A stretch of DNA of 64,000 nucleotides from Fervidobacterium thailandense (GCF_001719065.1 NZ_LWAF01000005.1:62001-126000), one strand, 5' to 3'. Positions 4,692-26,151 are shown, counted from the stretch's first letter. The notes: generated by a model not told the origin, from the sequence alone. Made by a program: numbers and translations.

Positions 4692-6221
4692 TTATTTTCG
4701 TTCCACTCTCGGTTTGTCATCATACGATGTTATTCGTCCTTTTAGGACCTGTTGGATGTATTCAACAACAACATCCGCCATCACGAAGTACGTGTTGTAT
4801 CCCTTCTGGCCTTTGAACATCGAATAGCCATCTCCACCGGCTGCCATGTAATCGTTAGTAACAACTTTGTAGACTTTTTCTGGATCGATTGGCTTGCCAC
4901 CGACAAGTACCTCGACGAGTTTACCACCTTCGCTTTTGTAAGTACAACCTGCAACCTGCAAGAACGCACCCTGGCCTGCAGGAACACTCGCGGCGTATTC
5001 GAATACTTTGATGAGGTCAGACCCTTTCATTTCCAAGACGTACAGTGTATTACCAAACGGCAAAACTGTGAGCACGTCTCTTATTGTAATGTTACCAGGC
5101 TTGATTGATGCGCGAATTCCACCACCGTTTGTCAAAGCCAAGTCAGCTCCTGTCTTCCACAGCATAGAGTCCGTTATTAGGTTGGCAAGGTTTGTTGTTT
5201 TGGAGCGTACGTTCGCCCTTTCACCATCAAGGAAAATTTCCGTCACACCAATGACTGTATCGAGTTTTGCGCCTCCGAGTTTTCTGAAGTAATCAAGAGG
5301 TGTTTTAACGTACACAGCCTCTTTCGTTACAACCTGATAGATGTTTTTCCCAGCAGCGTCTTTGCCTACAACCCTTGATTGCACAACGGGGATTGCTTGC
5401 CATGTGATCTTTGTTACCTTACCTGCCTCGACTTCTATATCCGCCCTTCCCAAAACCTTACCCCATTCGAACGCTTGAACTATTGGGACACCGTTTACAA
5501 CTAAAGGTTTATCCATATTCGTGTGGCTGTGCCCGTCGATTATTAAATCGATTCCCGAAACTTCTTTCGCCAATTGATCGGCTGTTGTGTACAAGTCGGA
5601 GTAACCTTGCCCCACACCAAGATGCGTCAGTGCTATTACAACCTGAGCTTGTTTCCTCAATTCCGGTATCAAGTTCTTGGCAACATCGATCACGTTCTTG
5701 AATTCCAGATCTTCGCTGTTCGGTCCCTCGAGAATACGCGTATGTTCGGTGGTGAATCCAACTATGGCAATTTTGACACCACCGAGTTCTTTGATGATGT
5801 AAGGTGTGAAGAATGGCTTGCCATCCTTGTATATGTTTGCACTGAGGAAGGGGAACTTAGCCCATGCCATCTGCTTTAGCAACACATCACGCTTTTTGTC
5901 GAACTCATGGTTTCCAACAGCCATCGCATCCAAGTTCATTCGGTTGAGTGCGAAGATGTCCGGTAGGGCATTCAAAAGGTCGGATTCGGGCACACCAGTG
6001 TTAAGGTCGCCTGCGTGTAGGAACAGGACGTTGGGGTTTACTTTCCTCTCAGCGTCGATCATTGTGGCGATCGTCGCGAATCCTCCGATAATGTTACCTG
6101 CCGAATCCGTAAAAGGCCACGCTCTGCCATGCGTGTCGTTGATGTGGAAAACGGTAATCCTAACTGCCAACGAGAGTACCGTTAACAAAAGAACAAGAAG
6201 TAGGACAGAATACCTTTTCAT
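4692..6221 (-). CDS. Secreted 5'-nucleotidase / cyclic-nucleotide phosphodiesterase family protein (UshA/CpdB-like)
   Basis: The 509-residue protein has an N-terminal signal peptide and then a calcineurin-like metallophosphatase domain. Metal-binding motifs are visible in order: HINDTHGR (about 26), HAGDLNTG (about 66), GNHEFDKK, THLG and DGHSHTN. The C-terminal 5'-nucleotidase substrate domain follows, with GGGIRASIKPGNITIRD and NDYMAAGGDGY. It probably hydrolyses nucleotides or 2',3'-cyclic nucleotides in the periplasm for phosphate or nucleoside salvage. The nearby uridine kinase would fit nucleoside reuse. The ATG start follows GGAGGTGAAAGC. The exact substrate cannot be decided from sequence. 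Confidence 0.88.
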   Translation of the reverse strand: MKRYSVLLLVLLLTVLSLAVRITVFHINDTHGRAWPFTDSAGNIIGGFATIATMIDAERKVNPNVLFLHAGDLNTGVPESDLLNALPDIFALNRMNLDAMAVGNHEFDKKRDVLLKQMAWAKFPFLSANIYKDGKPFFTPYIIKELGGVKIAIVGFTTEHTRILEGPNSEDLEFKNVIDVAKNLIPELRKQAQVVIALTHLGVGQGYSDLYTTADQLAKEVSGIDLIIDGHSHTNMDKPLVVNGVPIVQAFEWGKVLGRADIEVEAGKVTKITWQAIPVVQSRVVGKDAAGKNIYQVVTKEAVYVKTPLDYFRKLGGAKLDTVIGVTEIFLDGERANVRSKTTNLANLITDSMLWKTGADLALTNGGGIRASIKPGNITIRDVLTVLPFGNTLYVLEMKGSDLIKVFEYAASVPAGQGAFLQVAGCTYKSEGGKLVEVLVGGKPIDPEKVYKVVTNDYMAAGGDGYSMFKGQKGYNTYFVMADVVVEYIQQVLKGRITSYDDKPRVERK

Positions 6222-6307: not shown

Positions 6308-7183
6308 TCAATCGTTTTCGCTTAAAAACTTTCTAAGATCCTTTTCACTGAGCTCTCTACAAGTTCTGATCAACTCGCGCACACTTTCGTACTCTCGTTT
6401 GCGTATCTTCTCGAGGATGTACCTCCTAAGCATCCACAAATGCCCAAATTTCTTGTACCCAGAAAGTAGGTACTCTTCGTCTTTGGTTAAGTAGAACATC
6501 ATCTCATAGTATTGCCAAGTTTTTGGACACGAATTTTTAAGATTGTTAAGTAATATTTCCTCGAGCCTTTGTCTTAGCAAGCCCTTTGGGATGCCCGTTC
6601 TGAGGTAATAATACAACGATAGGCAAAACTCCGAAGAGCGCGTGTTTCTGAGTCGTGCGATTTTCTCTTCGAAATAGTTCTCGATATCTTCCATAGCTTG
6701 GCTCGCGTAGAGTACAACGTCCAAATGGGGATCTCTGAGTAAAGTTTCAAGGTATTTCATGTTTTCCTCTATCCTTATGCCGTGGATAACGAACTTTGCA
6801 AGGTTCTTTGCTATTAACTTTTTTTCGTTCACACTTCCGACAACGAGCAACGCTTTAATTGGGAGGGAATTAATAATTGAATCTTCGAATTTCACGTCTT
6901 TCTGTTCCGGAATGGGAACCGAGAAGTAATCTTCTATCTCCGCTTCTTTCGTTCTAACGAGTAATATCGTAGAGAATGGATAAAACATCGCAAAGAGTAA
7001 TCCTTCGGCGATTGAGTGTCTTGTTAGAGCGAACATTAACACCGAGGTAGCGTAGAGCAGTATGTTCAGAACTCCGAACTTCGAAGTCAGAAATATTAGT
7101 GTGAAATTCAAAAGGACGATCAACAGATTTCCAAAGTCAAGAAGCGTAAGCAAAATTCTTCGCTCAGCAAACTCGGATTTCAT
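6308..7183 (-). CDS. PelE-like membrane protein with helical repeats
   Basis: A 291-residue protein whose first roughly 80 residues hold several hydrophobic segments (LLIVLLNFTLIFL, FGVLNILLYATSVLMF, AEGLLFAMFYPFSTILL). The remaining soluble part is rich in amphipathic helices and could be TPR-like. Pseudomonas PelE likewise combines membrane segments with TPR repeats and partners PelD. The gene overlaps the end of the PelD-like gene by 20 bases and is last in the operon. I assign PelE by architecture and position rather than clear sequence motifs. It would help assemble the inner-membrane exopolysaccharide synthase complex. Alternatively it is an unrelated membrane protein with HEAT/TPR-like repeats. 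Confidence 0.55.
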   Translation of the reverse strand: MKSEFAERRILLTLLDFGNLLIVLLNFTLIFLTSKFGVLNILLYATSVLMFALTRHSIAEGLLFAMFYPFSTILLVRTKEAEIEDYFSVPIPEQKDVKFEDSIINSLPIKALLVVGSVNEKKLIAKNLAKFVIHGIRIEENMKYLETLLRDPHLDVVLYASQAMEDIENYFEEKIARLRNTRSSEFCLSLYYYLRTGIPKGLLRQRLEEILLNNLKNSCPKTWQYYEMMFYLTKDEEYLLSGYKKFGHLWMLRRYILEKIRKREYESVRELIRTCRELSEKDLRKFLSEND

Positions 7184-8462
7184 ATTTCCGCTTCAACCTC
7201 TCCAAAAATCTTTCCTTTCCAGAATCGTCACAAACGGCCAGGAGTACCTTCAGGCGGACCTTATCACCAAACCTTATAGCGCAAGCTACATCGCTTTTGC
7301 GAAGCTCACCGAGGATTGATTCGTGGAGGGTAGCGTTGTACTCCAGGCAAACTTCCCTGTAAGGCACACCGAATCGTTCTAATCTCTTCTCCATGATTCG
7401 CTTCTTGTACTCGTAGTATTCTTCTTTCCATGTTCCGTCAATGTTTTTGAATCTTTCCTCCATGAATTTCTCTTGCTCGGCCACGACTCTGATGTTGGCG
7501 TACAACCAACTCGCGATGGAGTGTATGTATCTAACGAGTACCTGAGAAAACTTGGTCGGCTCGATTTCTTCAGAAACTAACACCCCAAACACTCGTTCAC
7601 GTTCCCCAACTGATACTGCAAACCACGGTTCATAGGTTTCTGTCAAAGTGCCTTCCATTAACACGTCGGTGATTGTACAACTACCTCTACGAGTTGCCAT
7701 CTCGATAACTTTACTTTTGCTTAATTCGAACGCATTTGGAAGAATTTTCTTGCCAATACCGGCAACGTACCTTAAGAAGTCACGTTCCATCTTGTAGAAG
7801 TGCAAATTACTCAGACCGAAAAATTCAGCGATCATTTCGATAGCTCTCGTAATTATTTCATCAACGTCAAAAACTTCAAGTTCCTTCAGTCTTTCTAGTA
7901 AAACGATTAGTCCTTCGCCTTCAAAGTATATTCTCATTTGGAGTTGTTCGACAACACTTTTCAAGGTTAACGAATCTTCGTAGAGCCTCTCAAGATCGCT
8001 TTGAAGTCTTGATTTCTCGTTTTCCAAAGTTTTGATTCTTTTTCGAAATATCTCGCCTACAATCCCCAACGGCAGACCACCGATCACCAGTATCAATGAG
8101 ATGGACTCAAAACTGAACCTATATTCGAAAATACTGTTGAACGAACGCGTCAACAAAATTATCTCCGTCACGATTAAACCGAACACATACAAGGCAAGTC
8201 CGTAACGAACAGCCCAGAGAAATAATCCTAAGATTAGCAGCAGAACCGAATAGTTCGCGGGCAATCGTCCAATCCATGTAAGAAGGAGTATTACAAAGAC
8301 AAATATGACATACTCAAGTACGTACCTTAAGTTCTTCAGACTCTGGGACAGGCTTGTTCCACTACGTGTTGCAAAGAGACTTGGTAATTCTAAGAAACTC
8401 TTCTTGTTGCCTGTCTTCCTTTTTAAACTATACATTCTTTTGGATTCTCTAACGATTTTCAT
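7164..8462 (-). CDS. PelD-like c-di-GMP receptor (TM helices, GAF, degenerate GGDEF)
   Basis: About 432 residues. The order is a short cytoplasmic N-terminus, four hydrophobic segments around residues 48-125 and a coiled coil around 140-170. A GAF-type domain follows at about 180-320, then a short C-terminal GGDEF-like domain. In that last domain LRKSD (RxxD at 388-391) sits where diguanylate cyclases have their c-di-GMP inhibitory site. The catalytic GGDEF loop is replaced by a stretch reading RFGDKVRLKVLLA. This is the PelD pattern: catalytically dead but able to bind c-di-GMP and switch on polymer synthesis. The ATG at 8462 follows AGAGGT and overlaps the pelG end. Family assignment rests on architecture, motif and neighbours. 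Confidence 0.75.
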   Translation of the reverse strand: MKIVRESKRMYSLKRKTGNKKSFLELPSLFATRSGTSLSQSLKNLRYVLEYVIFVFVILLLTWIGRLPANYSVLLLILGLFLWAVRYGLALYVFGLIVTEIILLTRSFNSIFEYRFSFESISLILVIGGLPLGIVGEIFRKRIKTLENEKSRLQSDLERLYEDSLTLKSVVEQLQMRIYFEGEGLIVLLERLKELEVFDVDEIITRAIEMIAEFFGLSNLHFYKMERDFLRYVAGIGKKILPNAFELSKSKVIEMATRRGSCTITDVLMEGTLTETYEPWFAVSVGERERVFGVLVSEEIEPTKFSQVLVRYIHSIASWLYANIRVVAEQEKFMEERFKNIDGTWKEEYYEYKKRIMEKRLERFGVPYREVCLEYNATLHESILGELRKSDVACAIRFGDKVRLKVLLAVCDDSGKERFLERLKRKYEIRVC

Positions 8463-9837
8463 GCACAATTACCTCTCTCTTTGGTAAATTCAGTTTAGTG
8501 CGGTTGAATTCGAAACGGAGGATATCGTCGTAAACCTTCTTAAAGCGCCTGTAGATAAAAATCGTAGAGATAACAAACGCTGCGGCGAAACCAAAGCCGG
8601 GAAGTCTTTTTAAAAGAAATGGCGAAGTTCCAAGGTTGATGCTAAAAGCGATGAGTGAACCGAAAAGAGGAATGTCTGGCAAATCGTAATAGTAGGATAT
8701 CAACGCAAAATAAAGAAAAAGGCCGTTTGCAGCCGCGCCAATCAGCCCGAATCTTAGTGCGGTGCTTGAGTATTCCGAGAATCCGAGAAGCTTAGATACG
8801 TAATTCGAGGTTACAAGTCCTGCTATAGTGAACGACACTTGAACGGACATGACTATTTTTGTGGATGCCCAAAGATTGTTGTCCATAGTTGATCTTGCGA
8901 TGTTTATATACCTCAGTGGCCTGTTTTCCTCGATAGAGCGGTAAAAGACGCGATAGCTCTCGTAGAATTCCGTTTCCAAATTTAGCACAAAAAGAATCAT
9001 CGTAGGTATTATGAATAGGTAAGAGAAGAACATTGGCAGGTCGTATTCGGGAGCAAAAACGAATCCCTTAGCAGGACTGTACCTGAAATGATACCAAGCG
9101 ATGAAATCATCAACCCAGGCGGCAAGATAGACGAGAAATCCGGTGATTGCTTGCTTCGGATAAACTTTGATTGCTTTTACGAATAAACTCTCACGCTGCT
9201 CGCTGTTGGTAGTTGAAAGGAACTTCTTGATACTGAATTGAAGCACCGTGCCAATTATCATAAGTCCCAGGTTGTATCCGAAGTATCCCAGTGCTTCGCT
9301 GAATTTGTTCCAGGCAGTGCAAAACATTAAACTCAGAAGACTCCCGCTTAGAAAAGCGACTATCACCGGCGAAAATTTTCTAATCGATGTTACAAAGGTC
9401 AACTGAACCCAGATGACGGTGAGCAAAATCATGGATTGTAGAAATAGTAGAAGTTTAACAAGATTTAAAGGATGGTTGATTACCCAAAATAGAATCACAA
9501 ACAAGCTGCTGAAACTTGCTGCGTATACGATGGTGTCTTTGTAGAAAAGGTAGATCTTACCGTATTCCTTTCGGTATATCAAATCAGATAAGTATCTCGT
9601 GACGGACGTTGAGAAACCTCCGTAGATTATTGTGGAAAATATGAACGTGTATATGAGTGCTGATATCGTGAATTCAGATCTTCCCTTTGGGAGAAGGATT
9701 TGTAAAAGAATCAACGTCACCGAGGACATTAACCAAGGTCCGGCAGCTACATTAGCTGAGTAAAAGACTGCGTAGATGTCGGAGAAAAAAGAGTTTCTCC
9801 TCAGAAGTTTGTTCAGTTCGAACCCTATACCAGCCAG
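8449..9837 (-). CDS. pelG: PelG-like exopolysaccharide membrane transporter, apparent CTG start
   Basis: An inner-membrane protein with about a dozen hydrophobic segments, matching PelG, the polytopic partner of the PelF glycosyltransferase. The first ATG in frame is at 9729, but the frame is open upstream for another 36 codons. Those codons read AGIGFELNKLLRRNSFFSDI, which resembles the conserved PelG N-terminus (MAGIGFEL-type). Reading starts after an in-frame TAA. The only initiator-like codon is CTG at 9837, seven bases after a strong GGGAGGG ribosome site. I therefore extend the gene to 9837 (about 462 residues, near the usual PelG length) and infer CTG initiation. It follows pelA by 39 bases and overlaps pelD. 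Confidence 0.82.
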   Translation of the reverse strand: MAGIGFELNKLLRRNSFFSDIYAVFYSANVAAGPWLMSSVTLILLQILLPKGRSEFTISALIYTFIFSTIIYGGFSTSVTRYLSDLIYRKEYGKIYLFYKDTIVYAASFSSLFVILFWVINHPLNLVKLLLFLQSMILLTVIWVQLTFVTSIRKFSPVIVAFLSGSLLSLMFCTAWNKFSEALGYFGYNLGLMIIGTVLQFSIKKFLSTTNSEQRESLFVKAIKVYPKQAITGFLVYLAAWVDDFIAWYHFRYSPAKGFVFAPEYDLPMFFSYLFIIPTMILFVLNLETEFYESYRVFYRSIEENRPLRYINIARSTMDNNLWASTKIVMSVQVSFTIAGLVTSNYVSKLLGFSEYSSTALRFGLIGAAANGLFLYFALISYYYDLPDIPLFGSLIAFSINLGTSPFLLKRLPGFGFAAAFVISTIFIYRRFKKVYDDILRFEFNRTKLNLPKREVIVHENR

Positions 9838-9876
9838 AAATTACCCTCCCCGCTTTCAAACCGCAAAATTTTCCTT

Positions 9877-12096
9877 TTACCGAAGAAGTTCAACTTCCAT
9901 TACGTTTTCGAACTGTTCCACAACCCAGAGATTTCCGTATGAGTAGATAACCTTTCCACCTTTCAGTTTGAACGGCCCGGCCGTTCTGAGGAAGTAATAC
10001 TTTGGTAGGTGCCAACCTATTGGCAAAATGGCTGTCAGTCGTTGTCCGTTCACTTTGATAAACGGACGTTCTGTAAAAAAGCGATAAATCAACTCTCCGC
10101 TCTCGGAAGCAAAGTGACTTTCAAGAAACGGATAGTATTGCCGAATTATCGTCAGAAAGGTTCGCAGTGTGTTGTACATTTCCATCCAAGTCTTTTTTTC
10201 AGGATTTCTGTCCTCGGAAAAGAGATCGTCGGGATGCAGGTAATACTGGAACCCCCCGAGGCTCATTATTGAGAGCACCGCGAGTGATACGAGCCTGTTA
10301 AGTGGATAGTAACCACTCACAGTTCTTGGAACAACCACCGCTGAGTCGTTAAACACTGTAAATTCAGAAATTGTCGTATCATCAAAATAAGTGGTGCCGA
10401 TGTACCGTATTGTTGGAAAATGTTCCAAGAGCTTCTTAACTCCGAATTCGTCTATCTTGTTGTTCGGTGCTACGTAAGAGTAAGCAATGTAGCGTTCACC
10501 AACGATTTGTTTGAGAAAGACCTTAAACATACGCAGTACGTTGTCAAGTTCCGCTTCATCCCACTTGTCTTTCATGAGCTCAATGTGGTTATATCCGTGG
10601 ATCGCTATTTCGTACCCTTCCGAAAGAAGTTCCAACAAAGCCTGCTTTTGCTCCGGAGTATTCACAAACTCCTGGAAGTTGTACGGCCACCGCGTGTCGC
10701 CTGAGTAGCTCGCAACGAAAACAGCGGTAAGTTTTAGACCGAGCTCCTTACCGAGCTTTTTCATCATGGGCCACCAGATCTTGTAAAAGAAATCGTTATC
10801 CGTGATATCCCCAAACTCTCTGGTTATCATGTCTATCTTTCTGTTATACGCCGGCAGCGGAAAGTCATCGAGTTGAATAGATATGCTGTTTATAATTGGC
10901 TGGACGTAAAGTGGTAAGCTCGAAAACACGGTCTGAACGAATAGTCCTCGACGTATTTTGTTAATCAAATCCAGCGGATAGTAGACTATCGTTCCACTTC
11001 CCAACCTCAGACTCCAAGCGAGTGGTTCACCATTCTCTCCGGAGAGTAGTACCTCTGAACCTGGAAGTGGTTCCTGAAAGCCAACATTCGCACCAATTGG
11101 TATTGTCAATCCTTCTGGAACGGGAAACACACGAGCTGAAATCTTCAGTTCCTTGATAAATTTTCGTATTGTACCTCTCCCCACAAATACGTATGTACCG
11201 CCCGTTGAAAGATACCTGTTTAGTTGCTCACTCCCAAGAACCAAGGAATCACCAAAATTGATGACAACGTTGAACTGTGAAATGTATTCGGGCATGTTGG
11301 TGAGCCAGAAGTAATTAACGCAAGCGTAGTCCATTGCTTTCCTCACGTGAAAATTATCCGGGCCAACCACGAGTACTTTGAAATCACTTTCGCTACCATA
11401 AATAAGTCTACTTAGAATTCTGAACAGGTCGACGGTCAGGTTTCCGTTATCGTCGAAAAGATAACCGTAGCTGATCATTCCACCTTGCGGACTGATAAAT
11501 GCCATTTCGTAAGTCTCACCTTGCACTGACACCTGGATAAGTGGTTCAGCAAATGCCCCAATTCGTCTGAAAGGTTCGACATCCCTCTCCCTCTTGAATT
11601 CGGAACGAACATTGGACGAAAAGACATCATTTACCGAAATCCTGTCTGGCTTGACTCTCTTCCAGCCGTAGGTGTACGAAACACCAAGGAGATTATATAC
11701 AGAGTTGAGTTCCCTTAAAGTGGGATGGTTCATGCCAGATATGTCGGTTAGAGCACCGATATTGTTGATAATTAGAATCTTTCCACCGTAAACCAAGAAA
11801 TCAAAGAGGGCTTTCAGATACGCTTTCGCATTCCTCATAGATGGTGTGTAATAACAGGTCACCAAAAGATCAAACTTTCTGATATCGTCATATGAAAAGT
11901 TAGAATCCTCGACGTCGAGGATTTTGTAATTTACCGCAAGCTTTGTGAATTCCGGAGCGACGTACCTCATAAGTATGTTGTAACCGTAACCTTGCTCTGA
12001 TCCCTTATAGAGAAGTAAGGCACTTTTCCCGAACACGAACGTGTAAAATGATATAACTAGAAATATTAAGAATCCAATTTTTCTAAGGTTCACCAT
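9877..12096 (-). CDS. PelA-like polysaccharide deacetylase (DUF2194 type), exported
   Basis: About 739 residues with an N-terminal hydrophobic signal (LRKIGFLIFLVISFYTFVFG). An N-terminal half looks like a class I glutamine-amidotransferase/DUF2194-type Rossmann region. A C-terminal half looks like a carbohydrate esterase deacetylase. Metal-ligand candidates are D410-D411 in QLDDFP and H500/H504 in HGYNH, the D-H-H triad pattern of CE4-like enzymes. It would remove acetyl groups from the polymer outside the membrane, as the PelA deacetylase domain does. I use ATG 12096, which follows GAGGTGTTCAGTC and overlaps the end of pelF by 14 bases. A longer frame to 12135 lacks a ribosome site. No glycoside-hydrolase domain like that of Pseudomonas PelA is obvious. 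Confidence 0.75.
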   Translation of the reverse strand: MVNLRKIGFLIFLVISFYTFVFGKSALLLYKGSEQGYGYNILMRYVAPEFTKLAVNYKILDVEDSNFSYDDIRKFDLLVTCYYTPSMRNAKAYLKALFDFLVYGGKILIINNIGALTDISGMNHPTLRELNSVYNLLGVSYTYGWKRVKPDRISVNDVFSSNVRSEFKRERDVEPFRRIGAFAEPLIQVSVQGETYEMAFISPQGGMISYGYLFDDNGNLTVDLFRILSRLIYGSESDFKVLVVGPDNFHVRKAMDYACVNYFWLTNMPEYISQFNVVINFGDSLVLGSEQLNRYLSTGGTYVFVGRGTIRKFIKELKISARVFPVPEGLTIPIGANVGFQEPLPGSEVLLSGENGEPLAWSLRLGSGTIVYYPLDLINKIRRGLFVQTVFSSLPLYVQPIINSISIQLDDFPLPAYNRKIDMITREFGDITDNDFFYKIWWPMMKKLGKELGLKLTAVFVASYSGDTRWPYNFQEFVNTPEQKQALLELLSEGYEIAIHGYNHIELMKDKWDEAELDNVLRMFKVFLKQIVGERYIAYSYVAPNNKIDEFGVKKLLEHFPTIRYIGTTYFDDTTISEFTVFNDSAVVVPRTVSGYYPLNRLVSLAVLSIMSLGGFQYYLHPDDLFSEDRNPEKKTWMEMYNTLRTFLTIIRQYYPFLESHFASESGELIYRFFTERPFIKVNGQRLTAILPIGWHLPKYYFLRTAGPFKLKGGKVIYSYGNLWVVEQFENVMEVELLR

Positions 12097-13525
12097 GACT
12101 GAACACCTCTTCGTAAAGCCTTCTATAACTTTCAATCATTCTTTTGAGATTATATTTCTCCCTTGCGATCATTTTTCCGTTTTCGGAGAAGGATCTGTAA
12201 ACTTCTTTATTCTTAGCCAGCTCAATCAATTTTTCAGCCATAGCATTGTAGTCCTTTGGTTCTACGATAAATCCAGACTGTCCATCTGGATCAAGTGCGA
12301 TTTCTGCACAGTTTCCAACGTTTGTTGCAACAACCGGAATTCCACTTGCCATTGCTTCAAGTTGCACAAGTGGCTGACCTTCCGAAATACTACTAATAAG
12401 CAAGACATCAATTATCTTGTAATAATCCAGCACGTTTGCTTTTCCAGTGAAAATCACGTTGTCTGTCAATCCGAAGAGCTCAACCAAACCAGTGCACTTT
12501 TCGTAATATTCTTCATCCTCGTCCCAAGGTCCTATGATGTACAACCTCGCGTTGGGAATTTGCTTTACCACCAGATCAAAAGCTTTGATCGCCGTGACGA
12601 TGTCCTTTATTGGAACCACACGCCCCACAACACCTATGTTAAATGTTTCATGTGGTTCGCGTTGAACAGCACTGAACTTATCAACATCAATACCGTTTGG
12701 AATGATTCTCATCTTTCGAAAATCAGCTTCCAGCTCGAGTTGGAAGAGCTGGTTTTTTTCAAACAACGTCGTCAACGCGTCACAGGACGTATACGCAGCT
12801 TTACTTATGAGTCTGAAAATTTCTATCCAAACTGGTTTGTAAATTTCGTCGATGCTTTTTGATCTTATAATCTCAATCTCACGTTCCCGATGATATATAC
12901 CGTGCTCGGTTACAATCAGCTTCCCGCCGTGATAGAACTTTCCAGCCATCGCTGAGAGAACTGCATACCCGGTAGTAGTTGAATGGTAAATATCGGCTCG
13001 AGGAGGCAACGATTGTATAGCGCTCAAGATGGGCATTATAAATCCTACGACAGTCCAGTAGAATCGAGTAAATCCCTCTTTTGAGAAATACCTGTAATAG
13101 ACATCCGTTAAAAATCGCCAAAACTCTTTAGTCTTGAGTATGAAATCCAGTCTTTTTCCAGCAACATCTCTCAGTAATTCTAAGAAGAGCTCGCCGCGGT
13201 TGATTTTGTAATCAATTAACTCGCGGATTTTGATAAAAATCCCATCAAGATCAATAGAAGAATCCATCGTTTCGAAGTCTGCCGAGAACAAAAGGTACTC
13301 GTATACCTTCTGCACATTGCTGGGAAGTTTATAAGCAAACGAACGTGTCCATCTCCATGGTGCAAGATGGACAACGTCAAATTCAACATCAGGCATATTT
13401 TCCATGAGCATTTGGAGCCAGTTTGATACACCACCGGTAACGTAAGGATACGTTCCCTCAACGATGACGCAAACTTTCATAGGTGTCATTCTTCTGCTAC
13501 TTGTCAAAGAGTACCTGATTTTCAC
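12083..13525 (-). CDS. pelF: PelF-like GT4 glycosyltransferase
   Basis: A 480-residue GT-B glycosyltransferase. The N-terminal VCVIVEGTYPYVTGGVSNW is the typical PelF opening. The C-terminal donor-binding domain contains GVVGRVVPIKDI and the E-x7-E motif in EGQPLVQLEAMASGIPVV. In the Pel system PelF uses a UDP-sugar, UDP-GlcNAc being the usual proposal, to build the polymer in the cytoplasm for export by PelG. The reading frame begins with a GTG at 13525 that overlaps the slyD stop. In-frame ATGs at 13489 and 13480 are alternatives, and no start has a strong ribosome site. Translational coupling with slyD is therefore likely. It is the polymerising enzyme of the operon. Confidence 0.82.
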   Translation of the reverse strand: MKIRYSLTSSRRMTPMKVCVIVEGTYPYVTGGVSNWLQMLMENMPDVEFDVVHLAPWRWTRSFAYKLPSNVQKVYEYLLFSADFETMDSSIDLDGIFIKIRELIDYKINRGELFLELLRDVAGKRLDFILKTKEFWRFLTDVYYRYFSKEGFTRFYWTVVGFIMPILSAIQSLPPRADIYHSTTTGYAVLSAMAGKFYHGGKLIVTEHGIYHREREIEIIRSKSIDEIYKPVWIEIFRLISKAAYTSCDALTTLFEKNQLFQLELEADFRKMRIIPNGIDVDKFSAVQREPHETFNIGVVGRVVPIKDIVTAIKAFDLVVKQIPNARLYIIGPWDEDEEYYEKCTGLVELFGLTDNVIFTGKANVLDYYKIIDVLLISSISEGQPLVQLEAMASGIPVVATNVGNCAEIALDPDGQSGFIVEPKDYNAMAEKLIELAKNKEVYRSFSENGKMIAREKYNLKRMIESYRRLYEEVFSHGEP

Positions 13526-13944
13526 GAGACGATGTTCAGAATCTCAACCTCGAAAATCAAATTCTTTCCTGCAAGTGGATGATTCGCGTCCAACGTTGCG
13601 GTTTCGTCTTCTATTTCGTCAACACGAACGATGAACATGTTACCATCAGGTTGATGAACTTCCAATAAATCACCCACGGACACACCTGCGGGGAGCATCG
13701 ACTTATTAATCTTGAACTTCAATTCCTCCCTCACGGGGCCGTACGCTTTTTCGTAAGGAACGGTAAATCTCTTCCGTTCTCCAATTTCCATTCCCAAGAT
13801 TTCTTCTTCAAAACCTTGAATTATCTGCCCAGCCCCAACAACGAATTCGAGAGGTTGTCTACCCACCGAAGAGTCGAAAACCTGGCCATCTTCAAACATA
13901 CCGGTGTAGTGAAGTGTAACCTTGTCCCCGAACTTAATTCCCAT
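13522..13944 (-). CDS. slyD: SlyD-type FKBP peptidyl-prolyl isomerase
   Basis: A 140-residue protein with an FKBP half at each end, interrupted by an insert-in-flap domain, the SlyD layout. Motifs include VTLHYTGMFEDGQVFDSS at the start and DANHPLAGKNLIFEVEIL at the end. It should catalyse proline isomerisation and act as a folding helper in the cytoplasm. No histidine-rich metal-binding tail is present. ATG 13944 is chosen because AAGGGAAGTGAACAC precedes it; the frame could extend to a TTG at 13962. It sits inside the exopolysaccharide operon and its stop codon overlaps the pelF GTG, so it is co-translated with pelF. Whether it serves that pathway is unknown. Confidence 0.88.
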   Translation of the reverse strand: MGIKFGDKVTLHYTGMFEDGQVFDSSVGRQPLEFVVGAGQIIQGFEEEILGMEIGERKRFTVPYEKAYGPVREELKFKINKSMLPAGVSVGDLLEVHQPDGNMFIVRVDEIEDETATLDANHPLAGKNLIFEVEILNIVS

Positions 13945-14026
13945 GTGTTCACTTCCCTTCAAAAAAGTTTTCTTGAAGATCCTTCTCTTGTGTTAACAAA
14001 TAAAAGTCTAAGATTTGGGCGTAAAC

Positions 14027-15607
14027 TTATCTTTGCAGCTGGTAGCTTGAAATTACCTCGTTTAGGTAGTTACGTCTAAGTGAAAAGAATTCTTTTAACC
14101 AAGAGACTTCTTCTTTCCACTGCTCGTATGTTGGTAATCCCCATCTGATGGAATGGAGAGACATCTCCGGTTCCAAGAGCTTTTCATACTTCTCAACAAC
14201 TTCTGTCGCAAGACCGCTGGCAAAGATTTTTTCAAAGATCTCGACCAATCTTTCAAAGAATAAAGCCCGGACGTCTTCGTTTTCGAGTAACTTTCTGAGC
14301 AAAACAGTAGCGTACTCGTTCATTGTCCATGGAAGCGTCGGATTACCGGACGTTGCAACTTTAAACGTATCATGCTCCGGTTCCCAGAACGCAAGGTCCA
14401 TGTCGTACATCATCCAACGCCAACGTCCGTCGCCAAGTGGTACCTTTTCAGCTTTCAACGTACGCCACATACGTTCGTTGTTACCGGGCCAATCGAGGTT
14501 TGCTGCAATAATCTCTGCAACATGAAAGTTGATAAAGTTATCCAGATCGATCATACTCTTTAGTTTCTCGAGCTCTGCACGTTCCGAGAAGTTTGTATTC
14601 TTTACGTACTCTATCAATTCTGAATAAAGTTTTTCGTCACCTTCCTTGCCGTCGTGTAACGTCATATCGTAATTGACTATGACAACGTTTTTTTCGCTAA
14701 CCCCATACTTAACCTGTAAGTAGCGTACGTCATAGTATTCCATCAAATAAACGATTCCCCAATACTCGCCGTTGATGTAGTGAACAACTGGATAACCATC
14801 TTGCGTATCAAAGCCTAAACCTTTGAAAATTTCACTTGCTACCATATCTCTCATATAGGCATATTCCCAATCGTTACCAGCGTTCCTGAGAAGCAGTTTT
14901 TTGTAACCAGTTCTTCCGAAAAATGGATACGTAAATTCTTTTGACTCGTTTCGTGCGTACAATCTGAGGGATTTTATTGGCAAACTCCTGGTGAATTCAC
15001 CATGAATTCGGATACCTATGTTCGTTCTGTACTTTAATATTCCACCCTCGAAATACTCCATCACCGCTTCACGTTCCCATTCACTTCCCCTCTGGTGGTA
15101 ATTCCCCGTCCAGTACGGGTTAGATGGATCAAAAAGCTTCCCTGGGACGTATATACCGCGTTCCTCGTCAAACAAGTTTCTTTCGTCGGTTATTATTGAG
15201 ATCACAGGTAAGGTATGTTCAATACCGATGAAATACGTTCTGAAGGTGCTGTCCACTATTTTGCCATCTTTAACCTCTATGATCCTCAAGATCCAAGCCT
15301 TTGGAAAATTCTGGGAGGGTGCTTGCCAGATAGGAGAAGTGGGAATAAACACCAAGGTTGAACTTTCATGACGGTCGATAATGAGCGGTTTTGAGTACTC
15401 CAACGTTCGGGCTGCTCCAGGTTGAGGAGCGGAACCGTCGAGAGTGTAGTAAATCGTGCCATTTAAAGTGGATTTGATAGAGACAGTGATTGGATTTTTG
15501 TAAAATCCAGACTCGTGGGAGACAATTATCTGTCCGAAAAGGAAAATGCTTGTAACCAAATACATCGCCGTAAAAATGACGGGTAGCACCTTCAATGCCC
15601 TAAACAT
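14027..15607 (-). CDS. Exported CotH-family protein with chitobiase-type N-terminal domain
   Basis: The 526-residue protein starts with a signal peptide (VLPVIFTAMYLVTSIFLFGQ). A beta-sandwich of the chitobiase/hexosaminidase C-terminal type follows at about 30-115 (IYYTLDGSAPQPG). A CotH kinase-like domain follows from about 130, with IGIRIHGEFTRSLPIKSLRL and YDMDLAFW, where DMD is the likely metal site. CotH proteins are atypical kinases first known from spore coats, and many are found near surface-polysaccharide genes. It may modify or anchor polymer or a surface protein; the substrate is not readable here. It is the first gene of the pel-like operon, behind a promoter, and its ATG follows AGAGGTG. 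Confidence 0.8.
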   Translation of the reverse strand: MFRALKVLPVIFTAMYLVTSIFLFGQIIVSHESGFYKNPITVSIKSTLNGTIYYTLDGSAPQPGAARTLEYSKPLIIDRHESSTLVFIPTSPIWQAPSQNFPKAWILRIIEVKDGKIVDSTFRTYFIGIEHTLPVISIITDERNLFDEERGIYVPGKLFDPSNPYWTGNYHQRGSEWEREAVMEYFEGGILKYRTNIGIRIHGEFTRSLPIKSLRLYARNESKEFTYPFFGRTGYKKLLLRNAGNDWEYAYMRDMVASEIFKGLGFDTQDGYPVVHYINGEYWGIVYLMEYYDVRYLQVKYGVSEKNVVIVNYDMTLHDGKEGDEKLYSELIEYVKNTNFSERAELEKLKSMIDLDNFINFHVAEIIAANLDWPGNNERMWRTLKAEKVPLGDGRWRWMMYDMDLAFWEPEHDTFKVATSGNPTLPWTMNEYATVLLRKLLENEDVRALFFERLVEIFEKIFASGLATEVVEKYEKLLEPEMSLHSIRWGLPTYEQWKEEVSWLKEFFSLRRNYLNEVISSYQLQR

Positions 15608-25879: not shown

Positions 25880-26151
25880 GGTGCCGTACACCCCGCTTCG
25901 ACTCACCCAGACCCGGTCGCACGTACCCACCATGGCTCCGACCGGGCGCTCCCACGGCACACACTTGCCTGCTTAGGGCTGCTTCCTTCCGGACCTGACC
26001 CGGTTCACAGGTAGTTGTTGCGTGGGACCCGATCTTCAACGCCACTGGGTACGCCGATACCGAACCCAGGTGGCCTCAGTCGGGGAATTCAGCCCCGCTA
26101 AGGTGGGTTTCGGGTACAGGGGACCACCAACCCCCCGCTTAGTACGGCACC
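25880..26151 (-). ncRNA. ffs: Signal recognition particle RNA, large bacterial form with Alu domain
   Basis: The minus strand carries the SRP core, including GGTCCGGAAGGAAGCAGCCC and the following TAAGCAGGCA, the hallmark of helix 8 and its tetraloop region. The two ends, GGTGCCGTAC and GTACGGCACC, are perfectly complementary and enclose about 272 bases, so this is the long form with an Alu domain rather than a short 4.5S RNA. A run of seven T residues follows the 3' end and gives the terminator. With Ffh protein it delivers nascent membrane and secreted proteins to the translocon. The short reading frames over it on both strands are artefacts. Confidence 0.93.

What the first reader, a model, noticed from the sequence alone, without database searches (positions are those of the whole stretch)
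6308..15607. A c-di-GMP-type Pel-like exopolysaccharide operon in a Thermotogota chromosome
Seven minus-strand genes with overlaps or short gaps read cotH-slyD-pelF-pelA(deacetylase)-pelG-pelD-pelE. PelF, PelG and PelD are supported by sequence motifs, and the PelA-type deacetylase by its D-H-H motif. PelE is supported only by layout. Known biology: Pseudomonas Pel needs PelA-G, and Gram-positive pelDEADAFG clusters lack PelB/PelC. Inference: this thermophile makes a regulated, deacetylated, amino-sugar exopolysaccharide, perhaps for biofilm or cell aggregation.
Basis: partly seen in the sequence, partly recalled or inferred. Interest (0 to 1): 0.85.

Follow-up and report, generated by a model that had tools for sequence, protein, structure and literature searches.

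The report
Pel biofilm-sugar operon in a Thermotogota
This heat-loving bacterium carries a real, complete set of genes for making Pel, a sticky biofilm sugar, of the kind known from Bacillus; the set is scattered through its phylum, and tracing it gives a likely job to a puzzling Thermotoga maritima enzyme whose structure is solved.

Summary
Confirmed. Window 6308-15607 (minus strand) holds cotH-FKBP-pelF-pelA(DA)-pelG-pelD-pelE. PelF, PelG and the deacetylase pass curated family cut-offs. The deacetylase keeps every catalytic residue of Bacillus cereus PelADA. PelD and PelE, invisible to single-sequence searches, match proteobacterial PelD/PelE by profile-profile comparison (98% and 95%; swapped controls 0.3% or less). 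The PelD model's five best PDB hits are all P. aeruginosa PelD, and its c-di-GMP I-site RxxD is invariant in 29 of 29 Thermotogota. PelG starts at a CTG codon (9837), not at 9729.

It is a new member of the known PelDEADAFG type; Pel in Thermotogae was already reported in one phrase (PMC7112194). New here: Pel is patchy (about 40 of 103 Thermotogota genomes), in two lineages, much rearranged. The PelAH-type hydrolase (GH114/GH191) usually lies in the cluster, but here it is on another contig. In two genomes it is identical to T. maritima TM1410 (TmGH191), for which no activity was found on fungal GAG; Pel is its likely substrate. CotH and pelGDE changed place together between this genus and its sister genus. 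Product, export past the toga and c-di-GMP binding are inferred.

The parts
14027..15607 (-). CotH-type kinase-fold protein with signal-like N terminus and chitobiase C-terminal/Fn3-associated domain; accessory, probably co-transcribed
   Evidence: CotH PF08757 198.9 bits; adjacent to FKBP-pelF in this genus only; in the sister genus it lies near pelG-D-E instead
13522..13962 (-). FKBP/SlyD-type peptidyl-prolyl isomerase (ATG at 13944); stop overlaps the pelF GTG
   Evidence: FKBP_C 82.3 bits; next to pelF in this genus and its sister genus, not elsewhere
12083..13525 (-). PelF, GT4 retaining glycosyltransferase (polymerase); EX7E motif; conserved start region at ATG 13480
   Evidence: NF038011 307.8 bits vs cut-off 100; DUF3492 248.7 bits; EX7E in 30 of 31 Thermotogota PelF
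9877..12096 (-). PelADA, exported DUF2194/CE26-like polysaccharide de-N-acetylase with N-terminal signal or anchor
   Evidence: PF09960 495.6 bits; phmmer to B. cereus PelADA 9ZAU E=1.9e-32 with DD, HxxxH, R and HPDD conserved; motifs in 26 of 27 homologues
8449..9837 (-). PelG, Pel exporter, CTG start codon
   Evidence: PF16933 271.9 bits; start assigned by comparison of 33 sequences
7164..8468 (-). PelD: TM helices, coiled coil, GAF, degenerate GGDEF with I-site RxxD (R390-D393); ATG at 8462
   Evidence: GAF_3 E=5e-5; hhalign to proteobacterial PelD 98%, 364 columns; RxxD invariant in 29 of 29; Foldseek top five are P. aeruginosa PelD
6308..7183 (-). PelE: N-terminal TM helices plus alpha-solenoid
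   Evidence: hhalign to proteobacterial PelE 95.2%, E=2.8e-8, 190 columns; controls 61 and 62 negative; all-helical AF2 model; found next to PelD in about 30 loci
4692..6221 (-). UshA-type 5'-nucleotidase/UDP-sugar hydrolase, downstream neighbour, probably not part of the operon
   Evidence: 5_nucleotid_C 149.9 bits; also downstream of pelF-pelADA in the sister genus

Best explanation
It is a Pel exopolysaccharide operon of the PelDEADAFG type. PelF polymerises a nucleotide amino sugar (by analogy UDP-GalNAc) at the inner face of the membrane. PelG carries the chain across, with PelD and PelE forming the inner-membrane complex. PelD switches synthesis on when c-di-GMP binds the RxxD site of its degenerate GGDEF domain. 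PelADA removes part of the acetyl groups as the chain emerges, giving a cationic GalN/GalNAc polymer. A GH114/GH191 hydrolase encoded elsewhere in this genome trims it. No outer-membrane PelB/PelC is encoded nearby, so passage through the toga is by an unknown route. Shown here: gene identities, catalytic and I-site residues, co-occurrence, and presence of c-di-GMP enzyme genes. Inferred: activity, sugar, complex formation, regulation, export, biofilm role.
For: Family scores; PelADA catalytic residues against 9ZAU; PelD/PelE profile matches (57, 58) with clean controls; PelD fold hits; invariant RxxD (43); co-occurrence over 103 Thermotogota: pelG in 40 of 41 pelF genomes, every DUF2194 gene over cut-off in a pelF genome, GH114 in 34 of 41 pelF genomes against 4 of 62 others; GH114 in or beside the cluster in many genomes; 17 GGDEF, 12 HD-GYP and 2 EAL matches in this genome. 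B. cereus PelD binds c-di-GMP through its RxxD and PelADA activity is needed for biofilm (PMC7112168, PMC13254593).
Against: No biochemical data. PelD and PelE fall below every single-sequence detection limit, and the PelD model is confident only in its C-terminal domain. Some Thermotogota pel clusters lack the deacetylase and the hydrolase (G054, G055, G059, G062), so the polymer may differ between lineages. The same-genus relative G076 has its pelG ORF in two frames. T. maritima also has another reported EPS-related operon near its oxygen reductase gene (PMC3065215).
Confidence: 0.9

Rival explanations
1. The genes make a different amino-sugar or neutral polysaccharide with the Pel-type PelF/PelG/PelD/PelE chassis; 'Pel' is right for the machine but not for the product.
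For: PelF is at most about 41% identical to PelF of other phyla in the plasmid collection; lineages lacking PelADA and GH114 exist; related T. maritima TmGH191 failed on fungal GAG (PMC12054363).
Against: PelADA active-site residues are all conserved; GH114 of the alpha-1,4-galactosaminidase kind co-occurs strongly with pel; Env-GH191 cleaves Pel.
Confidence: 0.2
2. The operon is present but silent or decaying: a relic in this lineage.
For: Rare CTG start on pelG; the relative G076 has pelG in two frames; patchy distribution over the phylum.
Against: All seven window genes are intact and closely packed; catalytic and I-site residues are conserved; CTG at the same site also occurs in G088 with an intact cluster.
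Confidence: 0.07
3. PelF/PelG belong to teichoic-acid or capsule transferases and flippases.
For: PelF C-terminal half resembles many GT4 enzymes.
Against: PelF equivalog and PelG models match nearly full length far above cut-off; next-best models fall below their own cut-offs.
Confidence: 0.02

Closest known systems
Bacillus cereus ATCC 10987 pelDEADAFG (PMC7112168; PelADA structure 9ZAU, PMC13254593)
   Same: Same five core genes, stand-alone deacetylase with the same catalytic residues, RxxD in PelD, separate hydrolase gene, no PelB/PelC in the cluster; CotH is a known accessory of Gram-positive pel clusters
   Different: Order F-ADA-G-D-E instead of D-E-ADA-F-G; FKBP in the operon; hydrolase far away; host is a toga-bearing thermophile; PelD and PelE strongly diverged
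Pseudomonas aeruginosa pelABCDEFG
   Same: PelD, PelE, PelF, PelG homologous; PelD I-site RxxD
   Different: PelA here is only a deacetylase (CE26-like, not GH166+CE21); no PelB or PelC seen near any Thermotogota cluster
Cetobacterium somerae pel cluster (L111)
   Same: PelAH-type hydrolase, GAF-domain PelD, DUF2194, hypothetical in the PelE position, PelF, PelG all contiguous
   Different: Order GH-D-ADA-E-F-G; only about 40% identity in PelF
Thermotoga maritima TM1410 = TmGH191 (2AAM, 9EUX, 9EUZ; PMC12054363)
   Different: In this genome the hydrolase gene is not in the operon

Membership tests
Pel biosynthesis operon, Gram-positive-type PelDEADAFG | PelF GT4 polymerase of the PelF equivalog family | tested here: met
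   NF038011 307.8 bits, cut-off 100
Pel biosynthesis operon, Gram-positive-type PelDEADAFG | PelG exporter | tested here: met
   PF16933 271.9 bits, cut-off 29
Pel biosynthesis operon, Gram-positive-type PelDEADAFG | PelADA deacetylase with zinc and catalytic residues | tested here: met
   phmmer 1.9e-32 to 9ZAU; DD, HxxxH, R, HPDD aligned
Pel biosynthesis operon, Gram-positive-type PelDEADAFG | PelD with GAF plus degenerate GGDEF and I-site RxxD | tested here: met
   hhalign 98%, R390/D393 invariant, Foldseek top five PelD at E about 2e-3 to 7e-3
Pel biosynthesis operon, Gram-positive-type PelDEADAFG | PelE next to PelD, TM plus helical repeat domain | tested here: met
   hhalign 95.2% over 190 columns, all-helical model
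Pel biosynthesis operon, Gram-positive-type PelDEADAFG | PelD binds c-di-GMP and this is required for polymer | not testable with these tools
   residues only
Pel biosynthesis operon, Gram-positive-type PelDEADAFG | Product is partially deacetylated alpha-1,4-GalNAc | not testable with these tools
   needs sugar analysis
Gram-negative pelABCDEFG | PelA with GH166 hydrolase domain fused to the deacetylase | tested here: not met
   protein has DUF2194 only; the GH114 gene is on contig C1
Gram-negative pelABCDEFG | PelB porin/TPR and PelC lipoprotein | tested here: inconclusive
   no such ORF in the window operon and no recurrent PelB/PelC-like neighbour in about 30 Thermotogota clusters; no genome-wide search was made

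The most novel reading that the evidence does not exclude
Thermotogota carry a c-di-GMP-controlled Pel system of the stand-alone-deacetylase type that works in a toga-bearing envelope without PelB/PelC, so Pel must cross or coat the toga by an undescribed route; its trimming hydrolase is the GH191 family, whose solved member TM1410 is a PelAH with Pel, not fungal GAG, as its substrate.
Probability: 0.5. Interest if true: 0.6.

Novelty: new member of a known kind. Interest (0 to 1): 0.45.

Why it matters
It gives a concrete, probably c-di-GMP-controlled candidate for the exopolysaccharide long seen in Thermotoga cultures and co-cultures. It supplies the missing genomic context of TmGH191/TM1410, whose authors could not find a substrate and asked whether it is a galactosaminidase at all: it sits inside a pel cluster. 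It also poses a sharp question about how Pel leaves a cell with a toga but no PelB/PelC in sight.

Tried and rejected
Single-sequence PDB search with PelD found nothing. Profile hmmsearch with PelD gave P. aeruginosa PelD only at E about 0.3 to 0.5, mixed with coiled-coil noise, so hhalign and fold search were used. The genome-contig scan with PelG found only one close relative. No riboswitch or other Rfam RNA near the operon in the window or near pel in six type A clusters. Promoter and terminator scans did not exceed shuffles. The PelE model gave no PDB match of significance. The small membrane protein between pelE and pelF in other genera is not a PelE duplicate. I considered CotH as a Pel core gene and rejected it: absent near pel in most Thermotogota loci read. 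For structure prediction I used only sequences the tool explicitly admits (window and L002), hence the shallow alignment.

Full report
OBSERVATION. The minus strand of window 6308-15607 encodes seven closely packed genes: CotH, FKBP/SlyD, PelF, a DUF2194 deacetylase, PelG, PelD, PelE. Gaps and overlaps: 64, -4, -14, 39, -20, -20 nt. Family scores are decisive for five of the seven: PelF NF038011 307.8 bits against a cut-off of 100; PelG 271.9 against 29, DUF2194 495.6 against 30.4, CotH 198.9, FKBP_C 82.3. PelD shows only a weak GAF match and PelE nothing.

CORRECTION TO THE GENE MODEL. The ORF table starts PelG at 9729, which cuts off the conserved N terminus. The true start is most likely at 9837: a CTG codon followed by AGIGFEL, with GGGAGG upstream and an in-frame stop two codons before. 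Among 33 sequences from Thermotogota, Cetobacterium and Proteobacteria (the window included) the same codon is ATG 21 times, TTG 7, GTG 3 and CTG 2; the same-genus genome G076 has TTG. PelADA most likely starts at ATG 12096 inside the end of pelF.

DEACETYLASE. The protein matches the solved B. cereus PelADA (9ZAU) at E=1.9e-32. The alignment keeps the metal/catalytic Asp pair (LDDFP), the HxxxH (HGYNH), the arginine (PRTVSG) and the HPDD motif that holds the catalytic His and its activating Asp, as named in PMC13254593. The same motifs were found in 26 of 27 Thermotogota sequences.

PelD AND PelE. A 29-member Thermotogota PelD alignment has R390 and D393, the I-site RxxD, invariant. Profile-profile comparison with five proteobacterial PelD proteins gives 98% probability over 364 co-linear columns with the two RxxD motifs aligned. 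PelE gives 95.2%, E=2.8e-8, over 190 columns. Swapped controls (PelD against PelE profiles) give 0.1 and 0.3%. An AlphaFold2 model from only two sequences is poor overall (pLDDT 48.7) but its C-terminal GGDEF-like domain is confident; the five best of 350,542 PDB chains are all P. aeruginosa PelD, at E about 2e-3 to 7e-3. The PelE model is helical throughout and finds no significant PDB match.

DISTRIBUTION. In 103 Thermotogota genomes PelG (PF16933) matches in 42, 40 of them over the cut-off, PelF in 41, DUF2194 over cut-off in 35, all of them with pelF. GH114 over cut-off occurs in 34 of 41 pelF genomes and 4 of 62 others (Fisher p about 6e-16, which treats related genomes as independent and so overstates the case). 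All genomes have GGDEF domains; pel genomes have more (median 15 against 9.5; same caveat). T. maritima, a named control, rings for PelF, PelG, DUF2194 and GH114. This genome has 17 GGDEF, 12 HD-GYP and 2 EAL matches.

GENE ORDER. I read stretches of up to 20 kb from about 30 genomes. Type A (family f10, two genera of f1, one f2 genus): D-E-x-F-G, usually followed by ADA and GH114. Type B (f3, f5, f8, the rest of f1): mostly ADA-G-D-E with F on the other strand nearby or elsewhere, GH114 often next to ADA. Trees of PelG, PelF and PelADA separate the two types, and the window's own family is split between them, which suggests transfer between lineages (FastTree, limited outgroups, Firmicutes not sampled). 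In the window's genus all genes are in one run with CotH and FKBP. In its sister genus FKBP-F-ADA-UshA stand in one place and G-D-E in another, beside MetF-like and PriA-like genes with CotH a few kb away. In this genome the PriA block exists on contig C7 but lacks both CotH and G-D-E. So CotH and pelGDE changed place together, which hints that CotH matters for Pel. Which state came first is not settled; f2 genomes with contiguous F-G-D-E nested among the sister genus favour a contiguous ancestor.

HYDROLASE. No hydrolase is in the window operon. The only GH114 gene of this genome is at C1:95508-96203 and is a homologue of T. maritima TM1410 (E=2.9e-34), with the catalytic Asp and Glu regions conserved. 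In genomes G090 and G093 the GH114 gene lies between pelF and pelADA; the G093 protein is identical to TM_1410 over its 323 residues and the G090 copy reads the same. One of them is therefore T. maritima or a species with the same protein. PMC12054363 reports that TmGH191 (TM1410) neither bound nor cut fungal GAG, that a homologue cuts Pel, and asks whether the T. maritima enzyme is a galactosaminidase; in the passages I read, the paper does not mention a pel cluster in Thermotoga and reports no Pel test for TmGH191. The genomic context makes Pel its most likely substrate.

EXPORT. Thermotogae have a toga, discussed as a modified or replaced outer membrane, and keep bamA (PMC8871954). No PelB/PelC-like gene recurs beside these clusters; a genome-wide search was not made. 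How Pel passes the toga is open.

NOVELTY. PMC7112194 already lists Pel operons in Thermotogae in one phrase, and PMC7112168 describes the same five-gene type with CotH as an accessory in Gram-positive bacteria. So this is a new member of a known kind. I found no paper in the library that joins Fervidobacterium with pelF, and only one that names TM1410; the library holds only open-licence papers, so this is weak evidence of absence. Exopolysaccharide and biofilm in T. maritima, alone and with a methanogen, are reported in PMC3065215 and PMC3038420, with another EPS-related operon suggested there.

Noticed in passing
L071:4546-5244, and equivalents in L075, L076, L108: A YcgR-type PilZ (c-di-GMP receptor) gene lies directly upstream of pelD in the f10 g32 clusters (PilZ 36 bits): a second c-di-GMP sensor beside pel.
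   Followed up: partly
L071:7400-7906, L075:7223-7828, L079:11886-12296 and five others: A conserved, apparently single-TM protein of about 130-240 residues without any Pfam match sits between pelE and pelF in type A clusters; it is not a PelE duplicate. Possible new Pel accessory.
   Followed up: partly
L083 and L089 (G093, G091); G094 by search hits: Tandem duplication of pelG-D-E and pelF with a single pelADA and single GH114 in genus g13, the genus of the TM1410-identical genomes.
   Followed up: partly
window 9837: pelG uses a CTG start codon; G088 (L085) has CTG at the same site.
   Followed up: yes
L096:8956-10367 (G076): pelG of the same-genus genome is split over two frames: frameshift or assembly error.
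   Followed up: no
L097:8663-9402 (G076): About 700 extra bases between CotH and FKBP compared with the window, without detectable similarity to the window.
   Followed up: partly
window 25884-26147: Large SRP RNA on the minus strand.
   Followed up: no
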